Of a DNA stretch of 64,000 nucleotides, positions 1,527-46,318 are shown piece after piece. Position numbers and translations under genes: made by a program. The stretch comes from Clavaria fumosa. Taxonomy: Eukaryota; Basidiomycota; Agaricomycetes; Agaricales; Clavariaceae. Location of the stretch: contig OX637801.1 of NCBI GenBank assembly GCA_951802425.1, forward strand, positions 372,001 through 436,000. The letters are read 5' to 3'. The notes under the pieces were generated by a model, which saw nothing but the letters and a program-made list of their open reading frames with translations, did no database searches and was not told the origin of the DNA. The number at the start of each line of letters is the position of its first letter. Position 1 is the first letter of the stretch.

Positions 1527-2213
1527 TGTCAAGGTCTAAACAAGGCTAGTAGTGAAGGGGTTAGCAGAACAGAGTGGAGTTGTGGTTATCGGAGTCCGAT
1601 GTTGGACAAACGGAGGAACAGATAAGAAAAGCAGAGACAGATGGGACTGCAGCCTCAATGTATGTGTTGTGCCACCATGTATATACCTTGTCCCTATTTA
1701 TCAAACAGAAAACAATGCCAGAAAGAAATCAAACACAGTAGTCAAACTCCAAGAATATCGGAGTCCGCCGGAGTTGGTCGGAGTTGGTTGGATGACGTGG
1801 AGAACACTGAGAACGATGAGGATGAAAGCTCAGAGATGTTAATATTCCAACTGAGGAGCAGGGAGTTACAGGTGGAAACTTATACTGCAAGGACAGAGTA
1901 TAGGAGTAATGTGAAACAATGTACATATCAAATTACTAGGAGGGTTTCACCACATGTGCCTGTGCAATTTTCATGGAACAAAGAAAAAGCAACTCCCATG
2001 GGTCATGGGTATCCTCCCATTGGTTACCAAAACAAGGGGATGGAGGGAGAAGATTCTAGAACGAAGTCCAAATGGTCTGAAGGCTGGCAGAGTGAAGCCT
2101 GATGAAGGTGCGGAGTGGAGCGAACAGAGTTATGGTGGAGCAAATCAGAGTTGGTACAGAGCCCGGAGTCCGGAGCAGGGATCATGCTTATGCAATCGGA
2201 TGGGGTCGTAACA
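1527..2213 (-). mobile_element. 5' LTR of element beta (degenerate)
   Basis: In minus orientation the element starts TGTTACGACCCC at 2213 and ends with a TGACA-type terminus at 1527. It matches the LTRs at 50642-51356 (minus) and 62496-63216 (plus) over its length. A TATATA core is retained, but the surrounding CpG sites are decayed relative to the 62496 copy. It is followed on the minus strand by the gag leader. Its right flank (from 2214) is chromovirus pol, so beta inserted into the A-left chromovirus. Confidence 0.8.
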
Positions 2214-2349
2214 GCCCCCCGCGACTCCTACTTCTCCAAGAAATCACAGGGCGCTTCACAAGGTCGCAACAAGGCATTCTCACTCTTGCCTGACAGCTCA
2301 CTACTACTTCGTAATGGTAAAATATATGTTTCCGACCACAACTCCCTGG
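2214..2349 (+). pseudogene. Chromovirus A-left pol fragment before the integrase zinc finger
   Basis: The translation contains PRDSYFSKKSQGASQ, then DSSLLLRNGKIYVSDH, matching the pol of the complete element A around 39.3-39.5 kb (there on the minus strand). This is the linker between RNase H and the integrase HHCC finger. It is cut on the left by the beta LTR and on the right by an alpha LTR fragment, leaving about 45 codons. Confidence 0.8.
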
Positions 2350-2660
2350 TTCTATGGTAATCCAGCTTTTTGAATGTCCACATCATGCTGTAATCTTTAG
2401 CAAGCTCACCCCTCGTCGTACCTATTGTTCCGCTGGCCTTCGTCGTTGCCGGCCCCTCGAACCTTCGATCCGAACATCGGACTCTATCGGATCCGATACC
2501 AGATACTCTGGACAGCATATATTTTCATTTTCTGAACTTTTTGCACTCAACCTCTACATCCTCCAAGGTTCTGTTTAGTGTTTCCGTCCTGTAATAAGAC
2601 CCCCTGAAGAACCTGGCTGCGAACATCTATTTGCAGCCAACACCTGTACAGCCTACTACA
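2350..2660 (+). mobile_element. Truncated LTR alpha (3' third)
   Basis: The sequence matches the last third of the alpha LTRs at 351-1242 and 14663-15569, ending in the common CTACTACA. It sits exactly between two non-adjacent parts of chromovirus pol. It therefore marks a deletion of the catalytic integrase region, probably through recombination involving an inserted alpha element. Confidence 0.75.
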
Positions 2661-3243
2661 CCATGCATGAGGCCCACATGGTTGCGACCGATCTCAAGAC
2701 ACTCCATCAGCACCTACGAGATCAACTCAGGGTCGCGAACGAAGCCTACTCACGCTTCGTGGACAGGAAGAGAGAGATTACACTGGATTGGAAGGAAGGG
2801 ACAAAAGTGTGGTTAGACTTGTGGAATGTGAAGATGAAGAGACCGATGAAGAAACTGGATTCGAAATGAGCCGGACCTTTCTCTATACTCGCAAAGTTTC
2901 GACTCATGCTTATTGCCTCCAGTTGCCAAAATCAATGCAAGGAATTCATGATGTCTTCCATGTTTCATTACTCGAGAAGGTCTACAACGACACCTTCCCC
3001 CAGCGACAACAACAACCCCTGCCCCCTATCGAAGTTGATGGCAAACAACACTACGAAGTCGCCAACATACTAGATTCTCGAAGAAGGGGTAGGAAAGTGC
3101 TCTACCTCGTACATTGGGAAGGTTACGGACCCGAGGATGACACCTGGGAACCCATCGAATCACTTTCCGGCTTGAAAGAACTCCTTGAGGACTTCCACGC
3201 AGCATACCTGGAAAAACCTCACGCAACTCGCACAACTCAATAA
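2661..3243 (+). pseudogene. Chromovirus A-left integrase C-terminus with chromodomain
   Basis: The frame starts MHEAHMVATDLKTLHQHL and runs into KVWLDLWNVKMKRP, where a TGA at about 2867 and a frame change interrupt it. It resumes as GIHDVFHVSLLEKVY and ends with a chromodomain: YEVANILDSRRRGRK, VLYLVHWEGYGPEDDTWEP. The aromatic WEGY and TWEP positions are those of chromovirus integrase tails, which in this family are thought to guide integration to chromatin. It is collinear with 38058-38639 (minus) of the complete element. It is convergent with the accessory gene at 3347-5353, as in the complete copy. Confidence 0.88.
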
Positions 3244-3346
3244 CTTTTTCCTCGTCTCCCTTTTCGTCTTTTCTTCTCACTTTCACACTTCAGAATCACA
3301 ACAGAATATATATGCGACAAAAATACAACAAGAAAATTTTTATCTA

Positions 3347-5353
3347 CTAGTCGCGAGCCCTTTCCTTCCCCTTTCGTGACCCTCCTGCCCCTTCCCCACC
3401 TTCTATACCTGCCTTGTTCATTTCCTCTTCCTCTCCCTCTTCGTCCTCCAACAACTGCCCAGTCTGATCGACCCGCGGGAACCCCATTAACTCAGCCCAC
3501 AACCGGTCTTGCTCCTTCTCCACCCATTTTGTCACCAATGACAACTCCACCCCACTCGACAGCTTACGAAGTAACTCTTCGTAACCGAAGAACACCACTT
3601 CTAAACTGCGACGCCCCCATGTGTGGAATTCGCTGATTTGTCCATGTGACGCCAGCAAAACCCCGTCCATCCCTAGCAGACTGTCAAACATCAACTTATT
3701 TTAAAATCCAAACAGGTCACTTACTTTCTTTCTCCCCACACGACCTTTCTAAAGCACTCCTCATCTCCTGTGATTCTCCCCATGCTTCCTCTAACATCTT
3801 CAATGATTCTGAAAATGAAGATCAACATATTTCGACCATCATAATTACGGGACTTACCCTTGTAGTCTCCTTGTGACTTCTCCAACTCAAGTCGCACCTC
3901 TTCCAACTCACATTGTGTTCCCCAGAGATTGACCTCTTGTTCTAATAAGGAAAAGAAGAAATAAGTTTAAGTATGCATAAAAAACAAATAAAACTCACCT
4001 TGCCATTCCCCATGGAGAGCCTCGAAATCTCTCTCCACCTCCTCCTTCCGCACCATCAACTCCGCGACCTTTACATCCACCCCACTGGACACGGATGCCT
4101 TCATCGAATCCACTCCCATTTCCTTAACCTCTCTGCCCTTTCCTACAGACTTGTGATTTTAGTAAAGTCACAGAATACTAGGAAAATATTGGAACTTACC
4201 TTTTTGCCCTTTCGCGTCTCTCTGCCCCTCACTACCTCCAAATCTTGGCATGCCTCCTTCAACTTTTCCTCTTGCCCTGGATGATACAAAATTTAATTGG
4301 CGATGCGATAACATAAAAAGCAATTACTTACTCCAGTAATCCCTCTGGAGGGTTTCAAAATTCTTTTCGAATTCCTCAAATTCGTCCCTTACCACGGCCA
4401 ACTCCACCTCCAGCTCCGCCTCCCTCGAGGACTTTGGCACCCACACTATCTTCTGTGTGGGCTCTGCGACTTGCTGTCGGAGCGTTGCGAGCTCCCTCTC
4501 AAGATCGGCCCTTGGGACCAAAGTCCCCATGACCTTCTCCTGTTCCTCCACCAACTCCCTCTACGATGCTGGCTTCATGACTCGCCTCCTTGTCGATGGA
4601 CCAGGCGTCGGCGACCACGACCTTGTCCTCACCCGTTTTCCGCATCCTGCTCACGTCAGGGTCCCCAGAATCGGTAGGATGGGAAACTTTTCCCCCACTC
4701 GGCTCACAACCTTGGGTGTCGCTGTGCCCACCATTTCCGATCCTTCCACACGCTTCAGCACCTCATCGATCTTCGCATCATCCCAACTGTATTCGTTCTT
4801 GATGCACCATCGCCAAAATTCCTGGACCCATGAGCATTTCCCATGGTCCTCTGTGCACTGACGACATTTGCCAGCAGCGCTGTGCTTGCACTGCCAGCCT
4901 TTTGCGACACAGTTGTCTCAATCCTGTGATTCAGCAATTAGAAGAGATGGAGGAATGAGAAATACTGCTACACACCTCTCGCTCCATCCCATTCCACTCC
5001 TTATTCTTTTTCGCTGATCCGATTTTCTTCCATGACTTTAGGAACTTCGCGGGCGACGGATCAGTCTCGCCTGCGACGTTGCCCCCCACTTTGCCGGGGC
5101 TTGCGATGTCGTCCGCCATCCTGCTTGGGCCCGCAACGTCGCCGGCCGCCTCGCCCATGCCTGCAACATTGCCTCGCGCCTTATCGCAACCCGCGGTTTC
5201 GCTTTGACGGCGCACAAATCGCACCTGTTCAGCCTTTTGACGGGCCAGTGCATCTGCCAGAACCCCCTTGTTGATGATGGGCTCTGTCTCGTCAAAGATG
5301 CGCAGTTCGCACTCAAGTTCAGTTTCATGTTGTTTTACGAAGGTGGAGACCAT
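3347..5353 (-). pseudogene. Antisense Zn2Cys6-type accessory gene of chromovirus A-left (decayed)
   Basis: This is a second, diverged copy of the six-exon accessory gene at 35896-37929, in the same place relative to pol and LTR. Exon 1 (5353-4976, 126 codons) begins MVSTFVKQHETELECEL and ends in phase 0 at a GTGTGT donor. Exon 2 starts at 4923 with the cysteine cluster (DNCVAKGWQCK, AAGKCRQCTEDHGKCSW). The first cysteine codon has become TGA and a further stop lies near 4650. A coiled-coil-like part is visible at 4554-4324. The last exon (3694-3347) contains RRSLEVVFFGYEELLRKL, matching the C-terminus of the intact copy. It is no longer functional, but its conserved exon plan is informative. 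Confidence 0.8.
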
Positions 5354-5453
5354 GGTGGTTGGACTTAGAGAAAATTCTTGGGTGTCGTGACCTGATCAAC
5401 ACACATCGTGCTGACTAATCGTCACATGACTTCCACTCTTGCAGGGCTCAAGG

Positions 5454-5469
5454 CTTGAAGGGGGGGTAA
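5454..5469 (+). promoter_or_regulatory. Polypurine tract of chromovirus A-left
   Basis: A purine run GAAGGGGGGGTAA lies directly before the LTR start TGTCAGGACC. The complete copy has the same tract, on the minus strand, at the equivalent place (35780-35795). It would prime plus-strand DNA synthesis and fixes the element's orientation. Confidence 0.75.
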
Positions 5470-6865
5470 TGTCAGGACCCATCCATTTTTACGTATCCAA
5501 TTCGACTCTATCATCACATACAGACCTCCTGACACCCCCTCACCACCTTGCGGACCACCCTACGCACTTCTGAAACCCGCCTTCCCCTTCCAGAAGCCTC
5601 CCTGACCTCCCCTGCATTCACACAACACTCACGACCACCATGCCATACTTGCGACATCTCCCTCCACCTCACCCATGCATATACTCTGCCCAGACTCACC
5701 ACCTCGACAGATGATATGCCATTGCACATCTTCTTCAGCCAACACATGACTTGCCATGCGGCACCCCTGGCACCACCACTACTAGTGCTAATACGTTACC
5801 AGCATTACGACCGTTACCAGCGTTATCCATGTGACTTCCTGCCCAAGCATCACCTGTGTCACTACCACCATCCATGTGACCGCATGCATGGACCTCGCGA
5901 CCTTAACAATGAAACACACTGCCGATGACCAGTTGAGCACTACTTCAAATTATGCTTCCCTTCTTCTCCCAAGTCATCTATAACTATGATACTTATGACC
6001 AAAGCACCTCCTCATAGTTATAGTTACTCATATGATTATTTAACTAAGTCGTGACCCATGACCAGTCAGGTTCACGACCTTACCTATGTTTCCTTTACCC
6101 CTCACGACCTTAGTAGAACATATCCATAGTCACTTTATGACTGACCATACCCCGTACTACTATAGTTCTGTCACTTGGCGACCTCTGTACTTTTCCTTTT
6201 CTGTTATACTCTCTGTACACATGTATATCAATCTCGCATGTACATACAGTACAATAGACTTGATATTGACGCACTTTGGTTTAAGCTTGAGGCCACGACG
6301 CCCTTTGAGCTTGGAACCATCACGATTGATAGGTCTTGTCTCTCTTGGTGAACTCAAGATCGTCAAGACACTTCTAACTCATCCTCCACACTCGTATAAA
6401 CTCGCGCACTTATGTATTCTCTTCTATTCATCTTGATACTGATTCCTTCGAACCCCACAGGTTCTCTTGTCAGTTGGCAAAGTCATTGCCTTCACTGACA
6501 TACCTCTCAACACCGTTGCGACTATCACAACCCTCTCAATATTGTCTATTTCTCCCTCCTCGTCTATTTCTTCCTTCATGCTTCATTGGCCAACTTCGTG
6601 ACCTTCTCATCATTACCTATTTCTTTCAACTCGTCCTTTTCCCTCTCTATACTTCATCTACCAACTTCATGACCTTCTCAGCGATGTCTCCCTCCTCTCT
6701 ACTTATCTCTCCTCATTCTCACATTTTCTCAGATGTTCTCGCGACCTTCTGGGACCAAGCATTATCGACTGTGCTCAACAGTTGATTGGTCTTAGCAAGT
6801 TTCCAGGACCGGTCACCAACAAGTCAACCTTCGGTATTACTTACGAGATGGGACAGGCCCTAACA
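5470..6865 (+). mobile_element. 3' LTR of chromovirus A-left
   Basis: The LTR starts TGTCAGGACC after the polypurine tract and ends GGCCCTAACA. It matches, inverted, the two LTRs of the complete element (34295-35779 and 43760-45298) over its whole length. Former TCGCGACC motifs are often TCGTGACC or TCATGACC here, consistent with CpG decay in an older copy. The right flank is the reverse transcriptase of gypsy element B, so A-left inserted there. The matching left flank is not in the window. Confidence 0.85.
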
Positions 6866-31150: not shown

Positions 31151-31711
31151 GCATCCTCCCTAATGAAGCAGATGCAGAGGCCAGGTTCAGGGACCCAATG
31201 GGCCTTGTGAAGTTGTTGATTGGGTGTTTACAGATGGTGAGGGGGAACAAGCACATCATATATGTGCAATATTGTGACAGTCAAGTCATGTGACCACACT
31301 TAAGGTTGTGAACATGTGATACACTAATCATGTGACAAGTCCCAATAGGATGGCCCATTTGTGTGATGGCACATCAAGGTTTGATATGTATGTTATAGGG
31401 CTAGTAAGCATGATGATATGCATACTTGCTCACATTGTATGCATATCATCATGCTTACTAGCCCTATAACATACATATCAAACCTTGATGTGCCATCACA
31501 CAAATGGGCCATCCTATTGGGACTTGTCACATGATTAGTGTATCACATGTTCACAACCTTAAGTGTGGTCACATGACTTGACTGTCACAATATTGCACAT
31601 ATATGATGTGCTTGTTCCCCCTCACCATCTGTAAACACCCAATCAACAACTTCACAAGGCCCATTGGGTCCCTGAACCTGGCCTCTGCATCTGCTTCATT
31701 AGGGAGGATGC

Positions 31712-32345
31712 TTGGCCCCAGTACCCCCTTATTCTCCTGCTCCACCTATGGTGCCACCAAGCCCTACACCACTGGCTCAACCACCCTCAGTTCCCATTCA
31801 TGGGTCCAGACACACCCTCACACCAGTATTACCCCCACTGTCCCCACTCATGACTAATTACTCTGGAGTGCTTCCAGTGCTCCCATTTCCAATACCCAGT
31901 GTTAACCCACCACCTTTGTCATATGGGTCACAACATTCACTGCTGCCAACCCAAAATTCTCTGCTGCAGTTGCTGCCATGACCCTTTGAGATGCCAGGGA
32001 TTCCACAAGGAATTCCACTGGCAGCACCCCCCATGGTGCCCATCAGGAATCCACCTGCTGGTCTGCCACCATACATCTACTACCCAAAGTCCAGTGATGA
32101 CAGCCCCAAACTCAAGGAGCCCAATGTCTTCACAGGTAAGGGCCCAGCATGCTAACAATGTTCATCTTGCAGTGTGTTACATGGTGTCTGGGAAAGCCAC
32201 AGAAATTCACTACTGATCAGGATCATGTCCTGTTCACCACCTCATACCTCTGAGACCAGGCAAATCCTTGGTGGATGCTGTACCCTGTTCAGCAACTGCC
32301 ACCCAAGATGCTAACAGCATATGTGAATGATGATAGCAATAAACA
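31712..32345 (+). pseudogene. Gag-like frame with a short intron, right palindrome arm
   Basis: The plus strand reads MAPVPPYSPAPPMVPPSPTP, then a stop, then GIPQGIPLAAPPMVPIRNPP and PPYIYYPKSSDDSPKLKEPN. At 32136-32172 is a 37-bp intron (GTAAGG to TTGCAG, with CTAAC). After it comes KPQKFTTDQDHVLFTTSYL, a stop and NPWWMLYPVQQLPPK. The order 'KLKEP..F' then 'DHVLF..SYL' then a Trp pair resembles retrotransposon gag capsid regions. It may be the 5' part of the copia-type remnant at 33250, but that link is not proven. Confidence 0.5.
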
Positions 32346-32347
32346 TA

Positions 32348-33240
32348 TATCATTTGGGTATGATATGCATGCACACTCACCCAGAATGTATACATATTGG
32401 ATGCACATATTGGATGCATACATTCTGCAATATGTGCATATCATATGTAAATGATATATGAGTACACTCACCCAACATTTACACATATCATATACATATG
32501 ATTCTGGGTGAGTGTACACATATATCATTTGTACAGTATATGATATGCACACATTGCAGAATGTACACATATCATACAATATGCATACATTCTGGGTGAG
32601 TGTGCATGCATATCATACACAAATGGTGTGTACATTATGGGCAAGAGTGTACAGATACCACTTGTGTATAAGATGTGTGCACACTTGCACAGAATGTATG
32701 CATATCATATACAAATGATATATGTGTATTACATGTATGTACACTCACCCAAAATCATATGCATACAATATGTGTACATTCTGGGTGAGTGTACACATAT
32801 CATTTGTGCATGATATGCATACACACTTGCAATGTATGCATATCATGCACAAGTGACATATGTGTACACTCACCCAGAATGTACTTACTAAGACTATATC
32901 ATACATACCTTATACTCACAACAACTTATATACAGCCTTTGGTACTTATATTGTATGTTTTGGATATGTGTCAGCAGTCTGGGTACACATATTGTAAGCA
33001 TACAATATGTGTACTCACACCACAATGTACATATTAAATATGTGCAGTACATTTACAACCTTGATACACATCACATGTGTATGATGTCATATCTTACCTA
33101 TGGTATGGCATAGAAAATGTAGAGCATGTGTGTATGGTATGATATAGAAAATGTAGTACATGTAAGTACATTGTACATATATGAGGCATGACAGACAGTG
33201 AAATCATGCATATCATACATGTATGATACCTTGTTGAGAG
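32348..33240. repeat. AT-rich dyad repeats (ACACATATCAT / TCTGGGTGAGTGTACA)
   Basis: Many imperfect direct and inverted copies of TTCTGGGTGAGTGTACACA and CATATCAT/ATGATATG occur over 0.9 kb. The block can form multiple hairpins. No gene is seen. A copia-type coding frame begins right after it. Confidence 0.75.
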
Positions 33241-33249
33241 CTGTCCAGA

Positions 33250-34294
33250 TGCCAACATTGCCCACCAGTTCGTTTTGGGGAAGAAGCGACCACAGAGGAG
33301 TATGAAGAAGCTGTTGGGGAGGGTGCTCATCAGATGTTTCTTGTCACAGATGGTGATCCTCACACTTACAAAGAGGTGATGAACACTGGTCAGGCTAAAG
33401 AGTGGGAGAAGGCAATTGTGGCCAAGCTCAAGCAGCCTCGCTCTTCGGGGACCTTCGAGTGGGTGTCCAAGGTCCCAGACAGCCACAAAGCAGTCGGAAG
33501 CTGCATGGTCTTTCAGATGAAGAGGGATGGAGATGGGAGGGTGGTCAGGTATAAGGCTAAAATAGTTGCAAAGGGGTTCTCACAGGTTCCAGGTCAAGAC
33601 TTTGAGGCAACATTTGCATCCGTCGCACATCTGATGACACTCTGAGCCCTTCTGTCTATGGCTGTGAGGGAGGACTGGACCCTCCACCAGGTTGATGTTG
33701 TCGGAGCATACCTGCAAGGCGGCTTGAGTGAAGAAATCTACCTTGACCCACCAGACAGAACACATACAAATGAAAAAGACTGGCAAGTCTGGTGCTTATG
33801 GAGACCACTCTACAGCCTCAAACAAGTGGGGAGACAATAGAAAATAAAGCTTGGCAAGACCATGAAATGATTGGGCTTGCCAGCAGGACAGCAGATGACT
33901 GTTTGTATGTGAAGTGAGAGGAGAAGAAGGTGAAGATACTTGTACTGGTGTATGTCAATGATATGGTGGTCATGGCAGTGGATGTCTGTGATGTGAAGTG
34001 GTTTAAGGCAGAGCTGGGAAAAGTCTTTTGACCTACTGACTTGGGAGAGCTGAAACACATTCTAGGAATCTGGGTCTGTTGTGACTGCATGGCCCACACA
34101 ATCTGATTGGACCAGATGGTGTACATTCAGGCACTTCTCACACAGTATGGCATGGAAAATTCCACACCTGTCACAATGTCAGCTGTTATCAAGGAAAAAT
34201 TATCCATTTCAGATTGTCCTGCTTCTGATGCTGACCATGCCACCTACAATGAGTCAACCTAGGGCTTTGGCTACCTCAAATGCCTTCAGTGGTG
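33250..34294 (+). pseudogene. Ty1/copia reverse transcriptase fragment, interrupted
   Basis: The frame holds TYKEVMNTGQAKEWEKAIVA, VGSCMVFQMKRDGDGRVVRY and KAKIVAKGFSQVPGQDFEAT. A TGA follows in place of Arg, then WTLHQVDVVGAYLQGGLSEE and RPLYSLKQ. Later, in another frame, it has LVLVYVNDMVV (YVDD mutated to YVND) and LGELKHILGI. These are the ordered motifs of copia RT. The frame reaches NAFSG at 34294, where chromovirus A interrupts it. The continuation GVLYATHT lies at 45299 onward. Stops and shifts make it inactive. Confidence 0.87.
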
Positions 34295-35779
34295 TGTTAG
34301 GGCCTATCCCGTCTTGATAGTAATGCCGGAGATCGACTCGTTGGTGACCAGTCTTGAAAACTTGCTAAGACCAATCAACTGTTGAGCACAGTCGAGAATG
34401 CTCGGTCCCGGAAGGTCGCGAAGACGTCTGAGAAGATGTAAGAGTGAAGAAAGGCAAGTATAAAAGGAGGAGATGTTGCTGGAAGGTCGCGAAGTCAGTA
34501 GACGAAGTATAAAGGAGGTGATTGATGAGGAGGGGAGAAATGGGTGACGCTGAGAAGGTCGCGAAGTCGACCGACGAAGTGTGAAGAAAGGAATAGACGA
34601 GGTGGGAGAAAGTGATAACGCTGAGAAGGTCGCGAGGTCAACCGACGAAGCGTAGAGAAGGAAAAAGACGAGGTGAAAGAAATAGACAATGTTGGAAGGG
34701 TCGCGGTGGTCGTGATGGTGTTGAGAAATGTGTCGGTGAAGGCGATAACTTTGCCAACCGACGGGTGAACCTGTAGGGTTCCAAGATCAGTACCAAGACG
34801 AATAATAAAGAATACTTAGATTGCGCGAGTTGTACGAGCACAGAGGACGAGTTAGAACAGAGTAGAGTGTGTCTTGGCGATCTTGTGGTCACCAAGAGAG
34901 ACAAGACCTATCAATCGCAGTGGTTCCAAGCTCAAAGGGCGTACTAGCCTCAAGCTTAAACCAATGTGCGTCAATATCAAGTCTACAGTACAAGAAATAC
35001 ATGCGAGACTTATATACGTGCGTACAGAGAGTACAACGAAAAAGGGAAAGTACAGAGGTCACCAGGCGACAAGACTATAGTAGTACGGGGTATGTTTAGT
35101 CGTAAAGTGACTAGGCGCGTGTTCTACTAAGGTCACGAGGGGTTAGGTATGCATAAGTAAGGTCGCGAAGATGACCTGTCACAGGTCGCGACCTAGTTAA
35201 ATAAGTATATATGTCGCTATAACTATGGAGGGGTTCTCGGATCATAAGTAACGTAATTATAGATGACTGAGGAGAAGAAGGGACGCATATTTGAAGTGTA
35301 TATACAGCTGACCATTGGTGGCGCGTTTGAGTGTTAAGGTCGCAAGATCATAAGAGCGATCACGTGAGTGACGCTAGTGACGCAGGTGACCTATGGGTGG
35401 GTAGTCACGTGGGTAACGCTGGTAACGCGAGTAACGGTCATAACACTGGTAACGTATTGGCGCTGGTAGTGGTAGCGCTGGGGGTGCCGCATGGCAAGTC
35501 ACATGCTGGCGGAAGAAGACGTGCAACGTCGTGTCGCGCGTAAGATTGGTGGGTCCGGGCAAGGTATGTGTGTGGAATAAGATAAAGGGAGGAGTCACGA
35601 GTATGGCATGGTGGTCGCGAGTGTCGTGTGAGTGCGGGAAAGGTTGGAAGTCTTCCGGAAGGGGACAGCAGGTTTCGGAAGCGTGTAGAGGGGCTCGCGA
35701 GCTGGTAGAGGGTCGTTGGGAGGGCCGTAGATGTTGGTAGAGTCGGCTTGGGTATGGGAAAAATGAATGGATCCTGACA
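34295..35779 (-). mobile_element. 3' LTR of chromovirus A (1485 bp)
   Basis: On the plus strand it starts TGTTAGGGCC and ends GGATCCTGACA. A tandem array of about 71-bp units, each led by GGTCGCGA, starts near 34411, 34482, 34555, 34624 and 34693. Seven exact GTCGCGA copies are visible in the whole LTR. Since it lies 117 bp before the ATG of the plus-strand accessory gene, its antisense side may supply that gene's promoter. Confidence 0.92.
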
Positions 35780-35795
35780 TTACCCCCCCTTCAAG
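35780..35795 (-). promoter_or_regulatory. Polypurine tract of chromovirus A
   Basis: On the minus strand GAAGGGGGGGTAA lies immediately before the 3' LTR start TGTCAGGATCC, the expected site for plus-strand priming. It is the same as at 5454-5469. Confidence 0.8.
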
Positions 35796-35895
35796 CCTCA
35801 AGCCCTGCGAGAGTGGAGATCACGTGATGATTAGTCAGCATGATGTTTGTTGATCAGGTCATGACACCCGAAAATTTTCTCTAAGTCCAACCACT

Positions 35896-37929
35896 ATGGT
35901 CTCCCCTTTTGTCAAACAACACGAGCCCGAAACCAGCAAAAACAAAAACGAGGTTGTGCGCGAAATGGAGATTTATGATGCAACGGAGCCTGGGATCAAT
36001 TTGGGGATCCTGGAAGACGCGCTTGCCTGTCAAAAAGCCGAACAGGCGCGATGTGCGCGTTCTCAAGAAGAAGTCGCGAGGCGCGAAAGGAAGAGCAAGG
36101 TCGCGAGTCCCAACAAGGCGAGGGACGACATCGTAGGCCCTAGCGGGTCAATGGAGAACGTCGCGGGCTCTAGCGGAGTAAGGGGCGAAGTCGCAGGTGG
36201 AGCTGACCCGTTGCCCGCGGACTTCCTGAGGGCATGGAAGAAAATTGGGTCAGCGAGGGAGAATAAGGAATGGAACGAGAGGGAGCGAGAGGTGCGTAGC
36301 AGTATTTTTCGTTCCCATTCATTTTCTAATTGTTGTGTCAAAGGATTGCGACAATTGCGTCGCAAAGGGCCGACAGTGTGAGCGCAGCACTGCCGGCAAG
36401 TGTCGTCAGTGTGCAGAAGACCACGGAAAGTGCTCGTGGGTTCAAGAATTCTGTCGATGGCGTGTCAAAAGTGAATACGGATGGGACGACGCGCAAGTCG
36501 ATGAGGCGCTGAAACGCGCCGAGGGATCGGAAACGGTGGGCATGGCGACGCCCAAGGTCGCGAGTCGAGTGGGGGGAAAACTCCCCATCCTACCGGTTCC
36601 AGAAACCCCTACACGAGTAGGGCGTGGAAAACGAACAAGGGCAAGGTCGTGGTCGCCGACGCCAGGTCCTTCGATGTTGAGGAGGCGAGTCGCGGATGTA
36701 CCAGAAACAGAGACGGAGGTGGAGGAAGACATGCCGGTGCGACTGATGAATGTCGCGAAGGTTCGCGCGGAGAAGGCGCGGATTCTGGCAACCCCGGGAG
36801 AGAAGGGACGGTTGCTTCGGAAGGTGATGAACTGTGAGGAAGAAGTCAAAGTCCTCCAAGGGCGGTTGGAAGTGAGGGCGACAAAGGAGCGCTGGCTAGA
36901 AGGGAGGCTGAAGAAAAGCGAGGAGGAGGTCGCGACGACGGTGCGGACGAAGGTGGCGACATCGTCACATGAGTCCGGAACGAGAGAGGAGTTGGAGAGG
37001 GAACTCGCGACGTTGAGGCAGCAGGTCGTGGAGCCCTCGAGGAAGATGTTGTGGGTGGAGAAATCGAACAGGGAAGTGGAGTTGGAAGGAGAGCTGGCGG
37101 TGGTGAAACACGAGTTGGAGGAGGCGCGGAGAAGCGTAAAAGGTGAGTTTCCTTTGTGTTCAGTGACTTTTTACTGAACTTGCGAGTTTATAGGGAAGGG
37201 TAAGGAGGTGGAAAGGATGCGGGGGACATTGTCGAAGGTGCCCGCATCCAAAATTGTGGACGTGGAAGTCGCGGAACTGACCGCGCGAGCTGAGGGGGTG
37301 GAGAGGGAGTTTGAGGCACTCCATGGGGAGTGGGAAGGTAAATAATCAATTAGTTTTACCGCGTTATAAACTGATTTCCTTTGTTTATTCAGATCAGGAA
37401 ACCAAGTTGAGAGAGGCGCGCCGCGAGGTGAAGGGATTGAAGAAGGAGAAAGAGGGTAAGTCAATGGTCGCGAGTATAAAATGACTTAATTCAGTGTTTT
37501 TTAGGATTAGTCGCAACTGTGGAGAAGATGGAGGAGGAGTTGTCGGTGTCGAGGGGACAGTCGCAAGGTAAGTGGTCGCGAGTTTCGTATCCTTAATGAT
37601 AAGCTGACAGTTTGTTTCTAGAATTGCATGACCAATGCGGGAGTATGGTCGGTGAGTTCCGCGAGGCTCGCTTTCGAGGACGACGCGGCCTCGAGACGGT
37701 CTTCTTCGCCTACAAAGACCTCTTGATGAAGTCGCCGAAAGAACTTCCGTCGTGGGTGGAGAGGTGGGTGGAGCAGGAACAGTGTTGCGTGAGGAGGGAG
37801 TTACTGGACATTCCAAGGGTGGACCATTGGGGTTTTGAGTTGAAGGCTCCCAAGGATGGAGAGGAGGAGGAGGGGGGAAAGAAAAAAGTCACGAGTGTGG
37901 AAGGCGGGGAAGGAGCAGAAGGGTCATGA
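35896..37929 (+). CDS. Antisense accessory gene of chromovirus A: Zn2Cys6-cluster, coiled-coil-like protein (6 exons)
   Basis: Exons: 35896-36291, 36344-37142, 37194-37337, 37393-37455, 37505-37567 and 37622-37929. Introns are 49-55 bp, all GT-AG; the first is in phase 0, the other four in phase 1. Joined they give 590 residues with no stop. Residues 134-162 show C-x2-C-x6-C-x7-C-x2-C-x6-C, exactly the Zn(II)2Cys6 binuclear cluster spacing of fungal DNA-binding proteins, with Lys140 and Arg142 in the first loop. A long Glu/Lys/Arg-rich, coiled-coil-like region follows (about residues 260-490). The C-terminus has RRGLETVFFAYKDLLMKSP. It lies between pol and the 3' LTR, convergent to pol. The diverged copy at 3347-5353 keeps the plan. 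A self-encoded DNA-binding regulator is my inference; a structural or captured host protein is the alternative. Confidence 0.85.
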
Positions 37930-38057
37930 AAGGGAAAGGAAAAAGCTCGCAACCAGTAGATAGAAAACTTTTCTTGTTATATCTTTTATTGCGTATATAA
38001 ATTGCTGTGAAGTCCGAAGTGAGAAAGTGAAGAAAAACGAAAAGGAGGCGAGGAAAA

Positions 38058-41000
38058 TTATTGAATTGCACGTGTCGCGCGAGGTTTTTCCGGGTAGGTC
38101 GTGTGGAAGTCCTTGAGGAGTCCCTTCGAGCCGGAAAGTGATTCAATGGGTTCCCAGGTGTTGTCCTCGGGTCCGTAACCTTCCCATCGTACGAGGTAAA
38201 GCACTTTCCTACCCCTCCTTCGAGAATCTAGTATGGCGGCGACTTCGTAATGTTGTTCGCCGTTGACCTCGATAGGGGGTGGGGGTCGCTGTTGTCGCTT
38301 GGGGAAAGCGTCGTCATAGACCTTTTCGAGTAATGAAACATGGAAGACATCGTGAATTTCTCGCATCTATTTCGGTAACTGGAGACGATATGCGTGAGTC
38401 GAAACTTTCGCGAGTATGGGGAAAGGTCCGGCTCGTTTCGAGTCCAATTTCTTCATCGGTCTCTTCATCTTCACATTCCACAAGTCTAACCACACCTTCG
38501 TTCCTTTTTTCCAGTCCGGTGTAACTTCTCTCTTCCTGTCCGTAAAGCGCGAGTAGGCCTCGTTCGCAACCTTGAGTTGATCTCGTAAGTGCTGATGGAG
38601 CATCTTGAGATCGGTTGCGACCATGTGGGCTTCATGCATGGGTATCCCTTCGAGGGAAATCGTGAGTCTTGGGTGGTATCCCTTGTTCGCGAAGAACGGG
38701 GAGACACCAGTCGCGCTGTGGGGGGTGTTGTTGTATACGAACTCGGCGAGCGGAAGTTAGTGGGTCCAGTCGTCCTGCTGGTAGTTCGTATAGATTCGAA
38801 TGTATTGCTCTAGAATTTGGTTGACTCGTTCTGTTTGTCCGTCAGTCTCGGGATGATAGGCTGTGGAAAGATTGGAAGTAATATCCAGAGCCTGACATAA
38901 TGAAGACCAAAACTTAGAAATGAATAATCTTCCTCTATCTGACACTATATCCGGGTAGCCCATGCTTTGAGAAGACGTGGGTGACGAAATGTTGAGCTAA
39001 CTCTTTCGCGGTGTCGGTAGTGTTGGTGGAGATAAAGATTGCTTGTTTCGTAAGTCGGCAGACAATGACGAGGATTGAGTCAAAGGTCGCGGAGAGAGGG
39101 AGGGCTTCGATGTGGTCCATCGAAATCGAAGACCAAAGTCGCTCGCCTATGGGCAAGGGTTTGAGGAGTCTGTAGGGTTTGTGTCAGACAGGTTTTGCCC
39201 TTGCGCAGGTGTGACAACCACAGACATAGACGGTTACGTCTTTTCGGAGTCCTGGCCAGAAAAACAACCTATTTATTAGTTGGGTTGTCTTCCTTATACC
39301 TGGATGTCCTCGTAGTTTGTGGTCGTGGTTGGAGCATAGGATATCGAATTGGAGAGAGTCGTGGTCGGGAACGTATATTTTACCATTGCGAAGTAGTAGT
39401 GAGCCGTCGGGCGAGAGCGAGAACACCTTGTCACAACCTTGTGAAGCGCCCTGTGATTTCTTTGAGAAGTAAGAGTCACGAGGGGCGTGTCGAATTCGCG
39501 AAATTAGGGCTTCTTCATTGAGGATGACAGCTGCTCGAAGTAGTTCTGGCGGTATCGCAACCTTGTTGTTTTGCGCATTAGTCGCGGGTTGGTCGGACTT
39601 CTTCGGGTAGACGTCGGGTCGTTGCGTGAGGGCATCTGGCTTCGCGCCTAGCTTTCCTGCTCGATAATGAATAATATAATCGAAACTGGAAAGGTACTCT
39701 GCCCAGCGGGCTTGTCGACGGCTAAGTTGCTTCGTGGTGGTAAAATATCGCAGGTTGTTGTGGTCTGAAAAGACCTGAATTTGGTATCGCGCGCCTTCAA
39801 GGTATGCTCTCCATTGCTTGAAGGCATCGTGTATCGCGAGTAGCTCTTTGTTGTAAATGTCGTAGTTGAGCTCTGCGGCGATCATTGTACGTGCGTGGAA
39901 AGCGATGGGACGTAGCTCATTAGTCGCGGGATCGGTTCGAGAGAGAATGGCTGCTATCGCGTAGTTGGAAGCGTCGCATTCAAGGGTAATGGGGTGGTCG
40001 GGATCGTAGTGTCGAAGGACGGGAGCTTCGGTAAAGGCCTGCTTGAGTATATTGAAGACTTCTTGGCATCGCAGACTCCATTTCCATGGTGTGTCCTTGC
40101 GGAGGAGTCGCATAAGTGGAATAACGATGCCGGAATAGTTATCTATGAATCTTCGATAGAAATTAGCAAAGCCTAAAAAGCTTTGAAGATCGCGGATCCT
40201 CGTGGGTATGGGCCAACTTAGAATGGCCTGTATCTTCGAAGGATCCATGGAAATTCCATCGGGGGACACTATAACTCCGAGGTATTCGACCGTCGCGATA
40301 TGGAAATCACACTTCTCGGGTCGCGCGTGTAAGTCTGCCTTGCGTAGATGTCGTAGGACCTCTCGGACGTGGTCGCGATGCTGTTCGAGGTTGTCCGAGT
40401 AGATTAAGATGTCGTCGAGGTAGACTACCATGTTGACGTCGACCAGATTGTGAAAGATATCATTCATAAGGTGCTGAAAGGTCGCGGGTGCGTTCATGAG
40501 TCCAAATGGCATGACAAGGTATTCGAACACACCGTAGCGAGTGCGGAATGCAGTTTTCCACTCGTCTCCTTCAGCTATCCTCATGTTGTTGTACCCAACA
40601 CAGAGGTCGATCTTCGAATAGATTTTGGCCGAACACAATTGGTCGACGAGGGTCTCAATTCGAGGGATAGGGTAGCGGTTTTTGCGAGTAATCTTGTTGA
40701 GACCTCGATAATTGACACAGAGGCGAAGGCCTCCATCTTTCTTCTTCGCGAAGAGTACCGGTGCACCTGCAGGGGATTTCGACGGCCGAATGAAGCCCTT
40801 ATCCAACATGTCATTCAAATAATCTTTCAACGTCTTTAACTCTACTTCTGACATGTTGTATAGCTTCCCGTGAGGAGGTGTTTCACCTTCCTCAAGTTTG
40901 ATTCGGTGGTTGTAGTCGCGGTGCGGAGGTAGTTCCGGAGCTAGATCTTCGGAAAAGACGTCCAGGAAGTCATGGTACTCGTGCGGAACTGTTTCTTCGG

Positions 41001-41714
41001 GTTTCGGAGGGGGTTGAGTGGTCGCGGAACTCGCGAGTATGGATTCGTCGTCATGGGGGTTGTTCACGGGTTGGAAGTATAGGAGACCTATAAATTCTCC
41101 TTGTTGCTCCAGGCGGCGAAGCATGGTGGCCTTGACCAATTGAACTCGCGGGGGTTTAGAGGGTTTCGGAGCCAAGTTCGCGAGGTCAGGGGAAGGTTTA
41201 CTCGGGGGTTTCGCGTCCAGAAGAGTGAGGGGGATAGTCGCAGAGCGGGCTGTCTGTCCGAAACTAAAGGTGAGGTTGGTCCAATCGATTCTATGGTTCC
41301 AGGTTCGCAACCAATCGAGCCCTAGAACCACAGGGGTGAGAGGATGAGTTTTAGTGACAAGGAACTTAATGGATTGGATAGTATCATTGGGGAATTTCGT
41401 ATTAGCGTGGACGTAGTGGGTTATATTGGAGCTGGAGGAACTTCCGTCGAAATATTGAAGCGGTAGAGGTTGCGGAAGTGGCATTAGGAGGTTTGGACGG
41501 GAGTTCGCGAGGGTGAAATCGATAAAATTCATGGATGCGCTGCAGTCCACAAGAGTATTTAGGAGAATTGAGCCAAAATCTGGTATTTGTGTCTTTATGA
41601 GGAAAGATTGGGAGGACTGGGAAGCAATAGGAGTATTAGAAAGGTCGCGAGGAATCTGAGGGGAAGAGGAACTAGTCGTGGCCCGCGCGAGTATGGGGGT
41701 TGGATCGTCGCGAC
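38058..41714 (-). pseudogene. Chromovirus A pol: protease, RT, RNase H, integrase, chromodomain
   Basis: The reading frame is -1 relative to gag. Protease: LVDCSASMNFIDF (Asp kept, usual DSG replaced by DCS). RT: FIRPSKSPAGAPVLFAKKKD, MPFGLMNAPATFQHLMNDIF and YLDDILIYS, the active-site pair intact. RNase H: LECDASNYAIAAIL, ELLAIHDAF and FSDHNNLRYF. Integrase: an HHCC finger (RGHPGIRKTTQL..., VCGCHTCARAKP), then DDE parts [35 protein letters not shown] and [20 protein letters not shown]. Chromodomain: YEVAAILDSRRRGRK, VLYLVRWEGYGPEDNTWEP. Lesions: TGA at 39184, a frame change near 38950, TAA at 38757 and TAG at 38367. Catalytic residues of RT and integrase are otherwise present, so decay is recent. 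Confidence 0.95.
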
Positions 41715-43703
41715 TCAGAGTTCCCCCGGAAGCTCCTGAGTCGCTTCCTTGTTTAACTCTTCGTGCGGGTCATCCACATCCTCTTCTACTTCTTCCTCTA
41801 CTTCGTACTCTTCCTGGATCTCTTCCTCTCCTTCCTCTAGCATGAAGACGGCTCGTCCAGCTAATCGTCGATCAGGGCATGCAATGCTGTAATGTCCCGG
41901 CTTTCCACATCTCAAACAAAGATTTCCCTGACAACGACGTTCTCATTCCTCATCGCTGAGGGGGACATAGGGCGGATTCGGATTCGGATTAGCGGGTCGC
42001 GGCGAAGTTGCGGGATTCCCTGCGGCTGGTCGGGGCGTCGTAGGATTGTTGCCAGCGACTGGGTAAGGTCGCGACGTCGTCTGGTAGTTGCGATTTCCGC
42101 CTTGTTGAGCCAAGGGGCGATTTCCACCTTGTTGAGCAGGGGGACGGGGAGCAGGAGGGTTAGTGTGGAATTGAGTTTGGTGAGTCTCACTCTCATATTC
42201 CCAGTGTCTCTGGTCAATCTGCATGGCCAAATCATGAAGTTCCTGATACGTCGTAGGTCGCGGAATGACTTTCATGGCCTCTTTAATGCGTGTGGACATC
42301 AAGCAGTAGAGTTCGGATTGTAGGGCGGCCGAGTTCCAGTTGGATTTGAAAGCGAATGACTCGAAACGGATAATGTGGTTCGAGAAATGTTCGTTTTCAC
42401 CCATTTGCAACAAGCGAAGGTTCTGGTCCGCCTCAATCTGCATGTTGACCACTCCAAACATTCCTCCGAACTCGCGAATAAACCCTTCCCAAGAGTGTAG
42501 GGCTGGGTGATCGGGATTGAATTGAAGGAGGGAAGTGTAGTGGCTCTGCGCGGTGTCCGTGAGATGAGAGGCTGCAAAAGTAACCTTCTCGTGGTCGCCT
42601 TGGAAGGTTACGGGTTTTGCGAAGAAAGTCATAAGACATTCCGTGACAAAGGGTTTCCATCTGCGCCGGTCGCGACCATTGAACGGCTCGGGGCGCCTGG
42701 TGTCGAGCTTGGATTCTCGAGCAAAGGCATCTCGGGTTGATGGTCCTTCGGAAGGAGGGGCCTGATAATAGTAATGGTGGTGGTGGGTACCAGGGGCCTC
42801 ATCTCGAAGTGCGGCGGCGGGGTGTGGAGGCATAGGGGGGACCGGAGGGACTTGCGGGGCTTCAGCCTGAGACGGGGGACGAGATGCTGGTCGTGTCTTG
42901 ATCGGAGGTACTGGTCGCACTTCCGGTTGTGGAATATGGAAGGGCTCGACCGGAATTTCTAGGCGTGGGGCAGGTTGAAGCGTTGCTTCGGTCCCTATAG
43001 GGTCGTGAGGGAGCGCCCTACTCGGAGTAGTGGCTGGCTGCGTCCACGTAGGCCAGCTGCTGCGAGGGGCGGTGTACCTAGGGATCCTGGAGACAATGGC
43101 GGGTCGCTCGTCGGGCGCGGCAGGGTTCGCGAAATTCTGAGGAGATGATTGGGCCGCGACCTGGAAAAGCAGGGCCATATCCCGGGGTCCTCTGGTGGGT
43201 TGAACCTGTCTTGGAGGTCGCGAGGGAGTATCCAGATCAGGAGGAGTCGGAACTCCACGGTCGGTAGTTCCTGGATACTGATGCTGACTCTCATATAACC
43301 GGTTCTGTGGGTTAGCTCGGAATCCATCCGTCAATCGTACCAATCGTTCATAGAGGTTTGTGGTCTCTACGAGGTATGCTAATTCTTCGTCAAGGGTTCC
43401 GGCTTCATATTGGCAGCGAGTGTTGTTGAGAATTTGGTAGGTACAGTGGTGAGGGCGGTCGAAGCGCGGGTAGCCAAGCTGCTCCACAAGCAATTCGGCC
43501 TCTTCTTGTGGTGACGAGGCGTGGCTGGGTGCGATTTGGACGGGTTCTTCGGGCTGTGATTGAACAACGGACGCAGGTCGCTCTTGAACGGTGGTAGGCG
43601 GCTCGCGAGTAGTCTCCAATGCCATTGGAGTAATCGCGCGGCTACCTGTGCGTGTTTGGAAGTGGTGAGTGATGGGTTGGGGAGGAGTGTGACTGGAAGA
43701 CAT
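41715..43703 (-). pseudogene. Chromovirus A gag with CCHC zinc knuckle
   Basis: The ATG at 43703 (MSSSHTPPQPITHHFQTRTG) follows a short leader after the 5' LTR. A Pro-rich N-terminus is followed by the capsid-like core: RPEPFNGRDRRRWKPFVTEC, HSWEGFIREFGGMFGVVNMQ and FSNHIIRFESFAF. A TGA at 41941-41943 stops the frame after PLSDEE. The same frame continues with a knuckle (CLRCGKPGHYSIAC, C-x2-C-x4-H-x4-C) and an acidic tail to a second stop at 41715. The first TGA probably arose from a CGA or TGG codon. Without readthrough the product would lack its nucleic-acid-binding knuckle. Confidence 0.9.
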
Positions 43704-43759: not shown

Positions 43760-45298
43760 TGTTAGGGCCTATCCCGTCTCGATAGTAATGCCAGAGATCG
43801 ACTCGTTGGTGACCAGTCTTGAAAACTCGCTAAGACCAATCAACTGTTGAGCACAGTCGAGAATGTTCAGTCCCGGAAGGTCGCGAAGACGTCTGAGAAG
43901 ATGTAAGAGTGAAGAAAGGCAAGTATAAAAGGAGGAGACGTCGCTGGAAGGTCGCGAAGTCAGTAGACGAAGTATAAAGGAGGTGATTGACGAGGAGGGG
44001 AGAAATGGGTGACGCTGAGAAGGTCGCGAAGTCGACCGACAAAGCGTGAAGAAAGGAATAGACAAGGTGGGAGAAAGTGATGATGCTGAGAAGGTCGCGA
44101 AGTTGACCGACAAAGCGTGAAGAAAGGAATAGACAAGGTGGGAGAAAGTGATAACGCTGAGAAGGTCGTGAGGTCGACCGACGAAGCGTAGAGAAGGAAA
44201 AAGACAAGGTGAAAGAAATAGACAATGTTGGAAGGGTTGCGGTGGTCGTGACAGTGTTGAGAAATGTGTCAGTGAAGGCGATGACTTTGCCAACTGACGG
44301 GTGAACCTGTAGGGTTCCAAGATCAGTACCAAGACGAATAATAAAGAATACTTAGATTGTGCGAGTTGTACGAGCGCAGAGGACGAGTTAGAACAGAGTA
44401 GAGTGTGTCTTGGCGATCTTGTGGTCACCAAGAGAGACAAGACCTATCAATCATGGTGGTTCCAAGCTCAAAGGGCATACTAGCCTCAAGCTTAAACCAA
44501 TGTGCGTCAATATCAAGTCTACAGTACGAGAAATACATGCGAGACTTATATACGTGCGTACAGAGAGTACAACGAAAAAGGGAAAGTACAGAGGTTGCCA
44601 GGCGACAAGACTATAGTAGTACGGGGTATGTTTAGTCGTAAAGTGACTAGGCGCATGTTCTACTAAGGTCGCGAGGGGTTAGGTATGCATAAGTAAGGTC
44701 GCGAAGATGACCTGTCACAGGTCGCGACCTAGTTAAATAAGTATATACGTTGCTATAACTACGGAGGGGTTCTCGGATCATAAGTAATGTAATTATAGAC
44801 GACTGAGGAGAAGAAGGGACGCATATTTGAAGTGTATATACAGCTGACCGTTGGTGGCGCATTTGAGTGTTAAGGTCGCGAGATCATAAGAGCGATCACG
44901 TGAGTGACGCTAGTGACGCAGGTGACCTATGGGCGGGTAGTCACATGGGTAACGCTGGTAACGCGAGTAACGGTCGTAACGCTGGTAGTGGTAGCGCCGG
45001 GGGTGCCGCACGGCAAGTCACGTGCTGGCGGAAGAAGATGCGCAACGTCGTGTCGCGCGTAAGATTGGTGGGTCCAGGCAAGGTATGTGTGTGGAATAAG
45101 ATAAAGGGAGGAGTCACGAGTATGGCATGGTGGTCGCGAGTGTCGTGTGAGTGCGGGAAAGGTTGGAAGTCTTCCGGAAGGGGACAGCAGGTTTCGGAAG
45201 CGTGTAGAGGGGCTCGCGAGGTGGTAGAGGGTCGTTGGGAGGGCTGTAGATGTTGGTAGAGTCGGCTTGGGTATGGGAAAAATGAATGGATCCTGACA
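43760..45298 (-). mobile_element. 5' LTR of chromovirus A (1539 bp)
   Basis: It has the same ends as the 3' LTR (TGTTAGGG and CCTGACA on the plus strand). It is 54 bp longer because it has one extra 71-bp tandem unit (near 44088-44160) and lacks 17 bp present in the other copy near 35450. Many substitutions are C/T or G/A at CpG. On the minus strand the leader after the LTR has no obvious TGG-type primer-binding site. Confidence 0.92.
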
Positions 45299-46318
45299 TG
45301 GTGTCCTATATGCAACACACACTTGACCAGTGTTACGGGAAGTGGTGCCGAAGGCTTGGATGAACTTTCCGTGAGGTGATCTGGTGCAGGGACTATTCGA
45401 GTCCCTAAAGTAGGAATAAGAGGTTTGAATGCGATTCGGTCTTTGGGTTCAAGTTGGGCAAGGATGTGACTGCTAGGCCTCCCAGGCTGAACAGTAGCTT
45501 GGAGCAGGTCAACCCTGAGGTTGTACTCAGTCTCATCAGTCTCAATAACACATTGGCAGAGATTAGACACTCCGCAAGCAAAAGTGTATTTGAGGGCAGG
45601 TCATTTAGGGTGATCCTATCTGAGGATATCAATAAGAATGGAGTGACTGAACTTGGTCAGATAGTGTGTGAGCCGAGTGATCTGATCCTTCCATTGCCTC
45701 CAGGTAGGGAATAACCTTCCAGAAGTTGGAGCGATAGCTACTTCAGGCCAACCAGAGATAGAGTGTCTCTCATGGGAAGTAGGAAATGCCAGTGTGATTC
45801 ACTGAAGTACAATAAGGTGATAGAAGACAAGTGAACAATGCTGAGGGGCTTCCCATGCCATTGTGCCCCTTATATACCTGAAAGAGGGCTGCAGGCACAG
45901 CCCGATCCCACAGTGCGCAGCTTGTCCTCACAGCACAAGGATGCTATCCATCTGCGGCGCCACTGCCTCCTGCAGTCCTGCCCAGTCTGCAGCTGCTTCC
46001 GCATGCTCCTGCAGTTCACATCTTCTGGTACTGCCTGTGATGTGCTCTTCCGCACTTGCCCCATCCGTCAGATGCCGCTGTCCTTCACTTATCGGTCCAT
46101 GTGTTCCTCCACAGTTCACCACATGGGGCTGTTTATCTCCACATGCTCTCCCAGCTGCCATGTGCTCCTGTGTGACGGCTCTTCTCTGCCATCCAGCTTA
46201 TCTCTCGGCTCTTATCTGCCCCTCATCATATGTAAGGAGGGCTTGTACTGCTCTCTCCACTCTATCCTTTGCTATGTGCTGGGGCCTGCACAAACTTAAC
46301 TTCCTTCCCCATTCCAAT
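45299..46318. other. Copia continuation, then no recognised gene
   Basis: The first bases continue the interrupted copia RT (GVLYATHT) and contain the second TGGTG. The match fades after about 30 bp. A plus-strand frame at 45454-45714 and a minus-strand frame ending near 45340 have no recognised family. 45840-46300 is cysteine-rich in all frames by composition, with a TATATAC box near 45872. Confidence 0.4.

What the first reader, a model, noticed from the sequence alone, without database searches (positions are those of the whole stretch)
35896..37929. Chromovirus carrying an antisense, five-intron gene with a Zn2Cys6 cluster
Between pol and the 3' LTR of a complete gypsy element, on the opposite strand, six exons join with five GT-AG introns of 49-55 bp (phases 0,1,1,1,1) into a stop-free 590-residue frame. 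The cysteine spacing C-x2-C-x6-C-x7-C-x2-C-x6-C fits the fungal Zn(II)2Cys6 DNA-binding cluster. Gag and pol of the same element are full of stops while this frame is clean. I know of no standard Ty3/gypsy protein like this. It may be a self-encoded regulator, a silencing antagonist or a captured host gene.
Basis: partly seen in the sequence, partly recalled or inferred. Interest (0 to 1): 0.87.

Follow-up and report, generated by a model that had tools for sequence, protein, structure and literature searches.

The report
Backward zinc-cluster gene in fungal retrotransposons
A retrotransposon family in this probable fungus carries, on the strand opposite to its own genes, a split gene for a probable DNA-binding, coiled-coil protein that many copies keep and natural selection preserves, so it looks like a built-in regulator and not a host gene caught by accident.

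Summary
Confirmed, and wider than described. At 35896-37929 (+) six exons join through five GT-AG introns (49-55 bp) into a 590-residue frame, antisense between pol and the 3' LTR of a chromovirus with target duplication. It is not one captured host gene: 75 of 96 chromodomains of this family, window included, have the gene antisense on the same side; intron sites recur in 24 of 32 to 39 of 40 copies; dN/dS against the window is 0.17-0.37 in 37 comparisons, and in 12 copies four of the five other frames give medians near 1, one 0.40. All six cysteines are kept in 35 of 37 copies, but Pfam Zn_clus stays below its cut-off and modelling was inconclusive. A second chromovirus family has its own single-exon antisense six-cysteine gene. 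Coil and C-terminal parts are shuffled between copies while pol is nearly uniform. Best reading: a self-encoded DNA-binding regulator of the element; activator, repressor or anti-silencer is open. No RNA evidence was available; the host species is unidentified.

The parts
34290..34294 (.). target site duplication TGGTG, left
34295..35779 (-). 3' LTR of the chromovirus
   Evidence: direct repeat with 43760-45298
35780..35895 (+). polypurine tract (read on -) and leader of the antisense gene; mean agreement with the window 0.87-0.98 per 20-bp step in 29 aligned sequences (window included), against 0.55-0.89 in the LTR steps
35896..36291 (+). exon 1, residues 1-132
36292..36343 (+). intron 1, phase 0 (same place and phase in 39 of 40 copies)
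36344..37142 (+). exon 2: cysteine cluster, basic linker, start of coiled coil
36347..36433 (+). six-cysteine cluster C134-C162
36626..36646 (+). basic stretch GKRTRAR, possible nuclear signal (inference)
37143..37193 (+). intron 2, phase 1 (31 of 38 copies)
37194..37337 (+). exon 3 (144 nt, phase 1 on both sides), coiled coil
37338..37392 (+). intron 3, phase 1 (35 of 37 copies)
37393..37455 (+). exon 4 (63 nt = 21 aa, phase 1 on both sides), coiled coil
37456..37504 (+). intron 4, phase 1 (24 of 32 copies)
37505..37567 (+). exon 5 (63 nt, phase 1 on both sides), coiled coil
37568..37621 (+). intron 5, phase 1 (26 of 32 copies)
37622..37929 (+). exon 6, C-terminal helical domain; the frame ends about 10 codons before the end seen in most relatives
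38058..38366 (-). end of pol with chromodomain (Pfam PF00385, E 2.5e-15)
38367..41769 (-). rest of pol (RT, RNase H, integrase pieces), broken by stops and one frameshift
41943..43703 (-). gag (PF03732) up to its first in-frame stop; a zinc-knuckle piece continues to about 41718
43760..45298 (-). 5' LTR
45299..45303 (.). target site duplication TGGTG, right
2211..6865 (+). second, older and broken copy of the same element family, with its own decayed antisense gene on the - strand (56% identical)

Best explanation
The gene is a standing part of this chromovirus family: an accessory protein gene read from the strand opposite to gag-pol, starting 116 bp inside the 3' LTR edge. Shown: recurrent place and orientation, recurrent intron sites, conserved cysteines, purifying selection. 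Inferred: an antisense promoter in or beside the 3' LTR makes a spliced mRNA; the protein enters the nucleus, dimerises through its coiled coil, and its six-cysteine cluster binds DNA of the element's own LTR or leader, so that it regulates transcription or silencing of its family in trans. The introns persist because the genomic RNA is the other strand, where they cannot be spliced. The sign is open; I lean to activation or relief of silencing, because the copies decay mainly by CpG-type transitions, as methylated DNA does.
For: Family-wide: 75 of 96 family chromodomains (window included; the 150 scored places out of 1420 first-look candidates, split by identity) have an exon of the gene on the opposite strand within 4.5 kb, 1 has one on the same strand there (given 145 rows and 84, so a lower bound). 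Same intron sites and phases in 39 of 40, 31 of 38, 35 of 37, 24 of 32 and 26 of 32 copies. dN/dS 0.17-0.37 in 37 comparisons with the window; in 12 of those copies median 0.26 in frame against 0.95, 0.88, 1.04, 0.40 and 1.16 in the other five frames. Cluster residues 133-165 88% identical to the window on average against 64-73% elsewhere. Zn_clus is the Pfam family matched by most members of the cluster alignment, 8 of 15, and 11 of 13 in the second family. 3.5-residue hydrophobic period in exons 3-5, p 0.0005. Conserved leader. LTR pair: 50 transitions to 1 transversion, 47 of the 50 in CpG-type context (no expected share was computed). A second chromovirus family has an analogous gene in the same place. 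Relatives in the protein database: P0001, at most 56% identical to anything in this genome, which reads on through introns 1 and 2 (by eye), and P0014.
Against: No transcript evidence. Zn_clus is not among the nine families listed for the whole protein, where the best is a coiled-coil family; for the cluster piece it stays below cut-off, as in the second family; a search of the genome with Zn_clus finds 23 places, none in this gene. The model of the cluster is poor (pLDDT 53) and matched nothing. No binding site was identified. Only exons 3-5 show the coil period; five other stretches do not, the exon 2 coil among them (p 0.24). 21 of 96 chromodomains have no detected gene. All 14 chromodomains at 48-50% identity lack the second family's gene, and the two of them read showed no antisense frame of this kind within about 2 kb (L050, L051), so chromoviruses can do without it. 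The comparisons share the window branch and include near-identical copies, so they are not independent; the closest copy, L009, shows no constraint in exon 6 (0.04/0.03). In nine copies the introns differ less than synonymous sites do, perhaps because they hold few CpG (untested).
Confidence: 0.6

Rival explanations
1. HBZ-like repressor: the antisense protein dampens the 5' LTR and so limits copy number and harm to the host, helping long persistence.
For: Same layout as HTLV-1 HBZ, an antisense gene expressed from the 3' LTR in spliced and unspliced forms, encoding a nuclear bZIP factor that lowers expression from the 5' LTR (review PMC10186651, passages).
Against: No functional data; fungal Zn2Cys6 proteins are mostly known as activators (recalled). 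Selection for self-limitation in a multi-copy element should be weaker than for activation (inference).
Confidence: 0.25
2. Anti-silencing factor, working like Arabidopsis VANC: it binds family-specific motifs and removes or blocks DNA methylation; shuffling of its modules tracks changing targets.
For: CpG-type decay of the LTRs (47 of 50 transitions) and TGA at arginine positions as the commonest stop in copies (37 of 59) fit methylated elements; [quoted passage not shown] modules are shuffled here.
Against: No sequence relation to VANC was tested; CpG decay points to methylation, not to a protein that opposes it.
Confidence: 0.2
3. Particle, RNA-handling or target-choice protein: coil and C-terminal domain act in assembly or integration, and the cysteines bind RNA.
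For: Cysteine clusters can bind RNA (recalled); the C-terminal model is a three-helix domain (pLDDT 72).
Against: Antisense expression would uncouple it from gag-pol; basic linker and six-cysteine spacing suit a nuclear DNA-binding factor better (inference).
Confidence: 0.12
4. Host transcription-factor gene captured once and carried as a passenger.
For: Zinc cluster plus coiled coil is a fungal transcription-factor layout; the introns look host-like.
Against: Beside 75 of 96 family chromodomains, with selection across copies. No host orthologue was identified, but 69 of 145 exon 1 places without a listed chromodomain nearby were not examined one by one, so an ancient capture as the origin is not excluded.
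Confidence: 0.03

Closest known systems
HBZ / APH antisense genes of primate T-lymphotropic retroviruses
   Same: Antisense gene expressed from the 3' LTR, with spliced transcripts, coding for regulators that are mostly nuclear (PMC10186651, passages)
   Different: bZIP (HBZ) or no bZIP (APH) instead of a six-cysteine cluster; here five introns; no sequence relation was tested
Antisense additional ORFs (TRP28) of plant Retand Gypsy elements
   Same: Antisense ORFs between pol and 3' LTR in nearly all recently active clusters, with predicted DNA binding (PMC11963269, passages)
   Different: Non-chromovirus plant lineage, TRP28 domain; the words intron and zinc do not occur in its main text
VANC anti-silencing proteins of Arabidopsis VANDAL elements
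   Same: Element-encoded, sequence-specific, diversifying (PMC5735166, abstract)
   Different: Carried by a DNA transposon (recalled); the function here is unknown
Fungal Zn(II)2Cys6 transcription factors (Gal4, LAC9, PPR1, HAP1, PUT3)
   Same: Cysteine spacing class and a coiled coil behind the cluster (the latter recalled for Gal4)
   Different: Score below the Pfam cut-off; carried inside retrotransposons
'add. ORF' of unknown function in fungal Gypsy elements, Novikova et al. 2010
   Same: Extra ORF drawn in a figure of fungal elements, according to its legend (PMC2864245, passages and section 5)
   Different: The section read gives neither strand nor content; figure and supplements could not be seen, so it may include relatives of this gene

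Membership tests
Ty3/gypsy chromovirus (the carrier) | LTR pair with target duplication, RT-RNase H-integrase pol and chromodomain at the integrase end | tested here: met
   LTRs and TSD; Chromo E 2.5e-15, RVT_1 E 7.5e-35, RT_RNaseH, Integrase_H2C2, Retrotrans_gag
Fungal Zn(II)2Cys6 domain | C-x2-C-x6-C-x5-12-C-x2-C-x6-8-C spacing (pattern recalled) | tested here: met
   regular expression; all six cysteines in 35 of 37 copies
Fungal Zn(II)2Cys6 domain | score above the Pfam PF00172 cut-off | tested here: not met
   window piece E 7.2, 7.2 bits against 21; best of 15 members E 0.36; second family: L052 15 bits, best of 13 members E 0.0035
Fungal Zn(II)2Cys6 domain | binuclear zinc fold | tested here: inconclusive
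   helices 2-14 and 21-29 over the two cysteine halves, but mean pLDDT 53 and no Foldseek match
Fungal Zn(II)2Cys6 domain | binding of two zinc ions and of DNA | not testable with these tools
   needs protein
HBZ-like antisense regulator | antisense gene starting beside the 3' LTR | tested here: met
   start 116 bp from the 3' LTR edge; recurrent place and orientation
HBZ-like antisense regulator | bZIP domain | tested here: not met
   no bZIP family among the nine Pfam matches of the 590 residues up to E 10
HBZ-like antisense regulator | transcribed from the 3' LTR and acting on the 5' LTR | not testable with these tools
   no RNA data or assay
Plant Retand antisense ORF (TRP28) | TRP28 domain PF04195 | tested here: not met
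   not among the Pfam matches up to E 10

The most novel reading that the evidence does not exclude
At least two chromovirus families of this fungus each encode, antisense from the 3' LTR, a family-specific six-cysteine and coiled-coil regulator, and in one family its dimerisation modules are kept as several deep types that are swapped between elements with nearly identical pol: a self-recognition or compatibility system by which retrotransposons control, or free from silencing, their own kind only.
Probability: 0.25. Interest if true: 0.9.

Novelty: new variant of a known kind. Interest (0 to 1): 0.76.

Why it matters
Antisense regulatory genes are known from a few retroviruses, and antisense ORFs from plant Gypsy elements. 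A selected, intron-bearing antisense gene with a DNA-binding-type cysteine cluster in chromoviruses, and an analogous one in a second chromovirus family of the same genome, suggest that encoding a regulator on the other strand is a wider strategy of LTR elements. It makes the question how such elements control, or escape silencing of, their own kind testable in fungi, and it warns that such genes may be annotated as host transcription factors or hypothetical proteins.

Full report
What is there. The window holds a complete chromovirus on the - strand: 5' LTR 43760-45298, gag, pol ending in a chromodomain at 38058-38366, 3' LTR 34295-35779, and TGGTG on both sides. Between the pol end and the 3' LTR, on the + strand, lies the gene of the finding. 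116 bp separate the 3' LTR from its ATG and 128 bp separate its stop from the pol stop on the other strand, so it fills the pol-LTR gap. In most relatives the frame runs about 10 codons further.

Is it more than chance? Exon 1 alone has 153 matches in the genome of 48.8 Mb (150 of 186 first-look candidates scored). I took 40 places at 6 kb each and aligned the window protein to them with a splice-aware script. One, L048, had been cut on the wrong side and is left out of the counts; the second window copy is counted in. Most copies are 54-91% identical and use the same intron sites and phases: 39 of 40, 31 of 38, 35 of 37, 24 of 32 and 26 of 32 for introns 1 to 5. In some copies the script put spurious extra introns around insertions or unlike parts. 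Comparisons with the window gave dN/dS of 0.17-0.37 in all 37 rows; L011, L043, L046 and L048 had been left out as nested, badly decayed or misplaced. These rows share the window branch and include near-identical copies. As a control, 12 of the copies were scored in all six frames: median 0.26 in frame, and 0.95, 0.88, 1.04, 0.40 and 1.16 in the others; I take the 0.40, a reverse frame, as a shadow of the coding frame. Against the simple picture, introns of nine copies differ less from the window than synonymous sites do, and the closest copy L009 shows no constraint in exon 6. On the whole this is a protein gene under selection.

Is it part of the element? Of 150 scored chromodomain places (out of 1420 first-look candidates), 96 belong to this family by a gap in identity (63-100% against 43-50%). 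Of these 96, window included, 75 have an exon of the gene on the opposite strand within 4.5 kb on the expected side, and 1 has one on the same strand there. Of the 54 others, 2 do, one of them and perhaps both by nested insertion (inference). That call was given 145 rows and 84; the left-out rows were mostly second pieces of the same place, so the count is a lower bound. 69 of the 145 exon 1 rows had no chromodomain within 6 kb; several lie near contig ends, and seven of the fetched loci with full or partial genes (L015, L016, L017, L020, L021, L022, L024) show no pol within the 6 kb held.

What the protein looks like. Exon 1 is a variable N-terminal part. Exon 2 opens with the six cysteines; 35 of 37 copies in which all six positions align have all six, the two exceptions being L043 and the second window copy, both decayed, while in L009, L023 and L044 the positions did not all align. 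Residues 133-165 are 88% identical to the window on average, the other stretches 64-73%. A basic linker follows, then coiled coil; exons 3-5 show a 3.5-residue hydrophobic period (p 0.0005), the exon 2 coil does not (p 0.24), nor do the other four stretches tested. Exons 4 and 5 are each 63 nt, 21 residues, phase 1 on both sides; by my rough exon finder 6 of 40 modelled copies have a series 63, 84, 63, 63 instead. Exon 6 is a helical domain (pLDDT 72). A Pfam scan of the whole protein lists nine weak families, mostly coiled coils, and not Zn_clus. For the cluster alignment Zn_clus is the family matched by most members, 8 of 15, best E 0.36, below its cut-off. A search of the genome with that family finds 23 places, none in this gene. 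So the cluster has the spacing and constancy of Zn2Cys6 but is at best a divergent member.

Modules are shuffled. In 17 copies compared with the window, pol from 38196 to 39795 is 78-98% identical per 200-bp step. The coil region 36796-37395 falls to 36-51% in L031, L032, L034, L036, L040, L041, L044 and L045, and the C-terminal region 37396-37995 to 52-61% in L028, L035 and L038 (58-69% in L031). Across 15 copies sorted by these types by eye, median RT dS is 0.19-0.36 in every pairing of types, but coil dS reaches 1.35-2.13 and C-terminal dS the ceiling of 2.5 between unlike types; alignment of unlike types is doubtful, which can inflate the latter. For 7 of 15 copies the nearest neighbour by RT is of another type. 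Template switching between co-packaged RNAs would explain this (inference; no tree test was made). One relative in the protein database, P0014, is 77% identical to L041 over 167 residues including its kind of coil, and P0001 has yet another middle part, so the types may be older than the species; the source species of both are unknown.

A second family. Of three other chromovirus places read, L052 has between pol and its 3' LTR (LTR edge judged by eye) a single-exon antisense gene of 328 residues with C-x2-C-x6-C-x10-C-x2-C-x6-C, a basic stretch and charged, coil-like parts; L050 and L051 show no such frame in about 2 kb. It has 131 matches in the genome, many open over the full length (122 of 254 candidates scored); 21 of the 54 other chromodomains have it antisense within 3.5 kb, one on the same strand, and none of the 14 at 48-50% identity has it (59 of 131 rows given, so a lower bound). 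Seven copies keep all six cysteines; dN/dS is 0.30-0.45 in the 15 pairs that involve L052, L056 or L058 and 0.49-0.66 in the 6 pairs among L053, L054, L055 and L057, without a frame control. Twelve proteins of the database match it, and Zn_clus is the commonest Pfam match, 11 of 13, best E 0.0035. Whether the two families' clusters share an ancestor is not shown.

How it probably works. The antisense strand keeps the introns through retrotransposition, since the sense genomic RNA carries them as unspliceable complement (inference from how LTR elements copy themselves). The conserved leader and the place suggest a promoter in or beside the 3' LTR. The closest worked-out parallel is HBZ (PMC10186651, passages); plant Retand elements have antisense ORFs in the same gap with a predicted DNA-binding domain (PMC11963269, passages). 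The copies decay by CpG-type transitions (47 of 50 transitions between the LTRs, with 1 transversion) and the commonest stop in copies is TGA where the window has arginine (37 of 59), as expected of methylated DNA. This keeps the anti-silencing reading (PMC5735166, abstract) alive beside activator and repressor. Transcription, zinc, DNA binding and target are all inferred.

Known or new. The paper searches listed nothing that describes it. One survey of fungal elements draws an 'add. ORF' of unknown function in some (PMC2864245, section 5); its figure and supplements could not be seen. I rate it a new variant of a known kind, the antisense accessory gene of LTR elements.

Noticed in passing
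30517-32345: Two 909-nt arms, 100% complementary, 11 nt apart: a perfect long palindrome, either a very recent inverted duplication or an assembly fold-back.
   Followed up: no
26954-29500: Large array of a 21-bp repeat unit, about 110 overlapping registers of a 300-nt reference, open in several frames.
   Followed up: no
33238-33645: Open frame that looks like a Copia-type reverse transcriptase piece near the element's 3' LTR (by eye).
   Followed up: no
50642-51357 and 62494-63216: Inverted pairs up to 95% identical over 402 bp, related also to 1245-2215: another repeat family.
   Followed up: no
34295-35779 with 43760-45298: LTR differences are almost only CpG-type transitions (47 of 50, 1 transversion), a methylation-type decay, so LTR divergence is a poor clock here.
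   Followed up: partly
L015, L016, L017, L020, L021, L022, L024: Gene copies without pol in the 6 kb held; several of them are close to contig ends and nearly alike: perhaps spread by subtelomeric duplication.
   Followed up: partly
L010 and relatives, introns of the antisense gene: Introns differ less from the window than synonymous sites do in nine copies; few CpG in the introns may be the cause.
   Followed up: no
L052:949-1935: Second chromovirus family with its own single-exon antisense six-cysteine gene, many open copies.
   Followed up: yes
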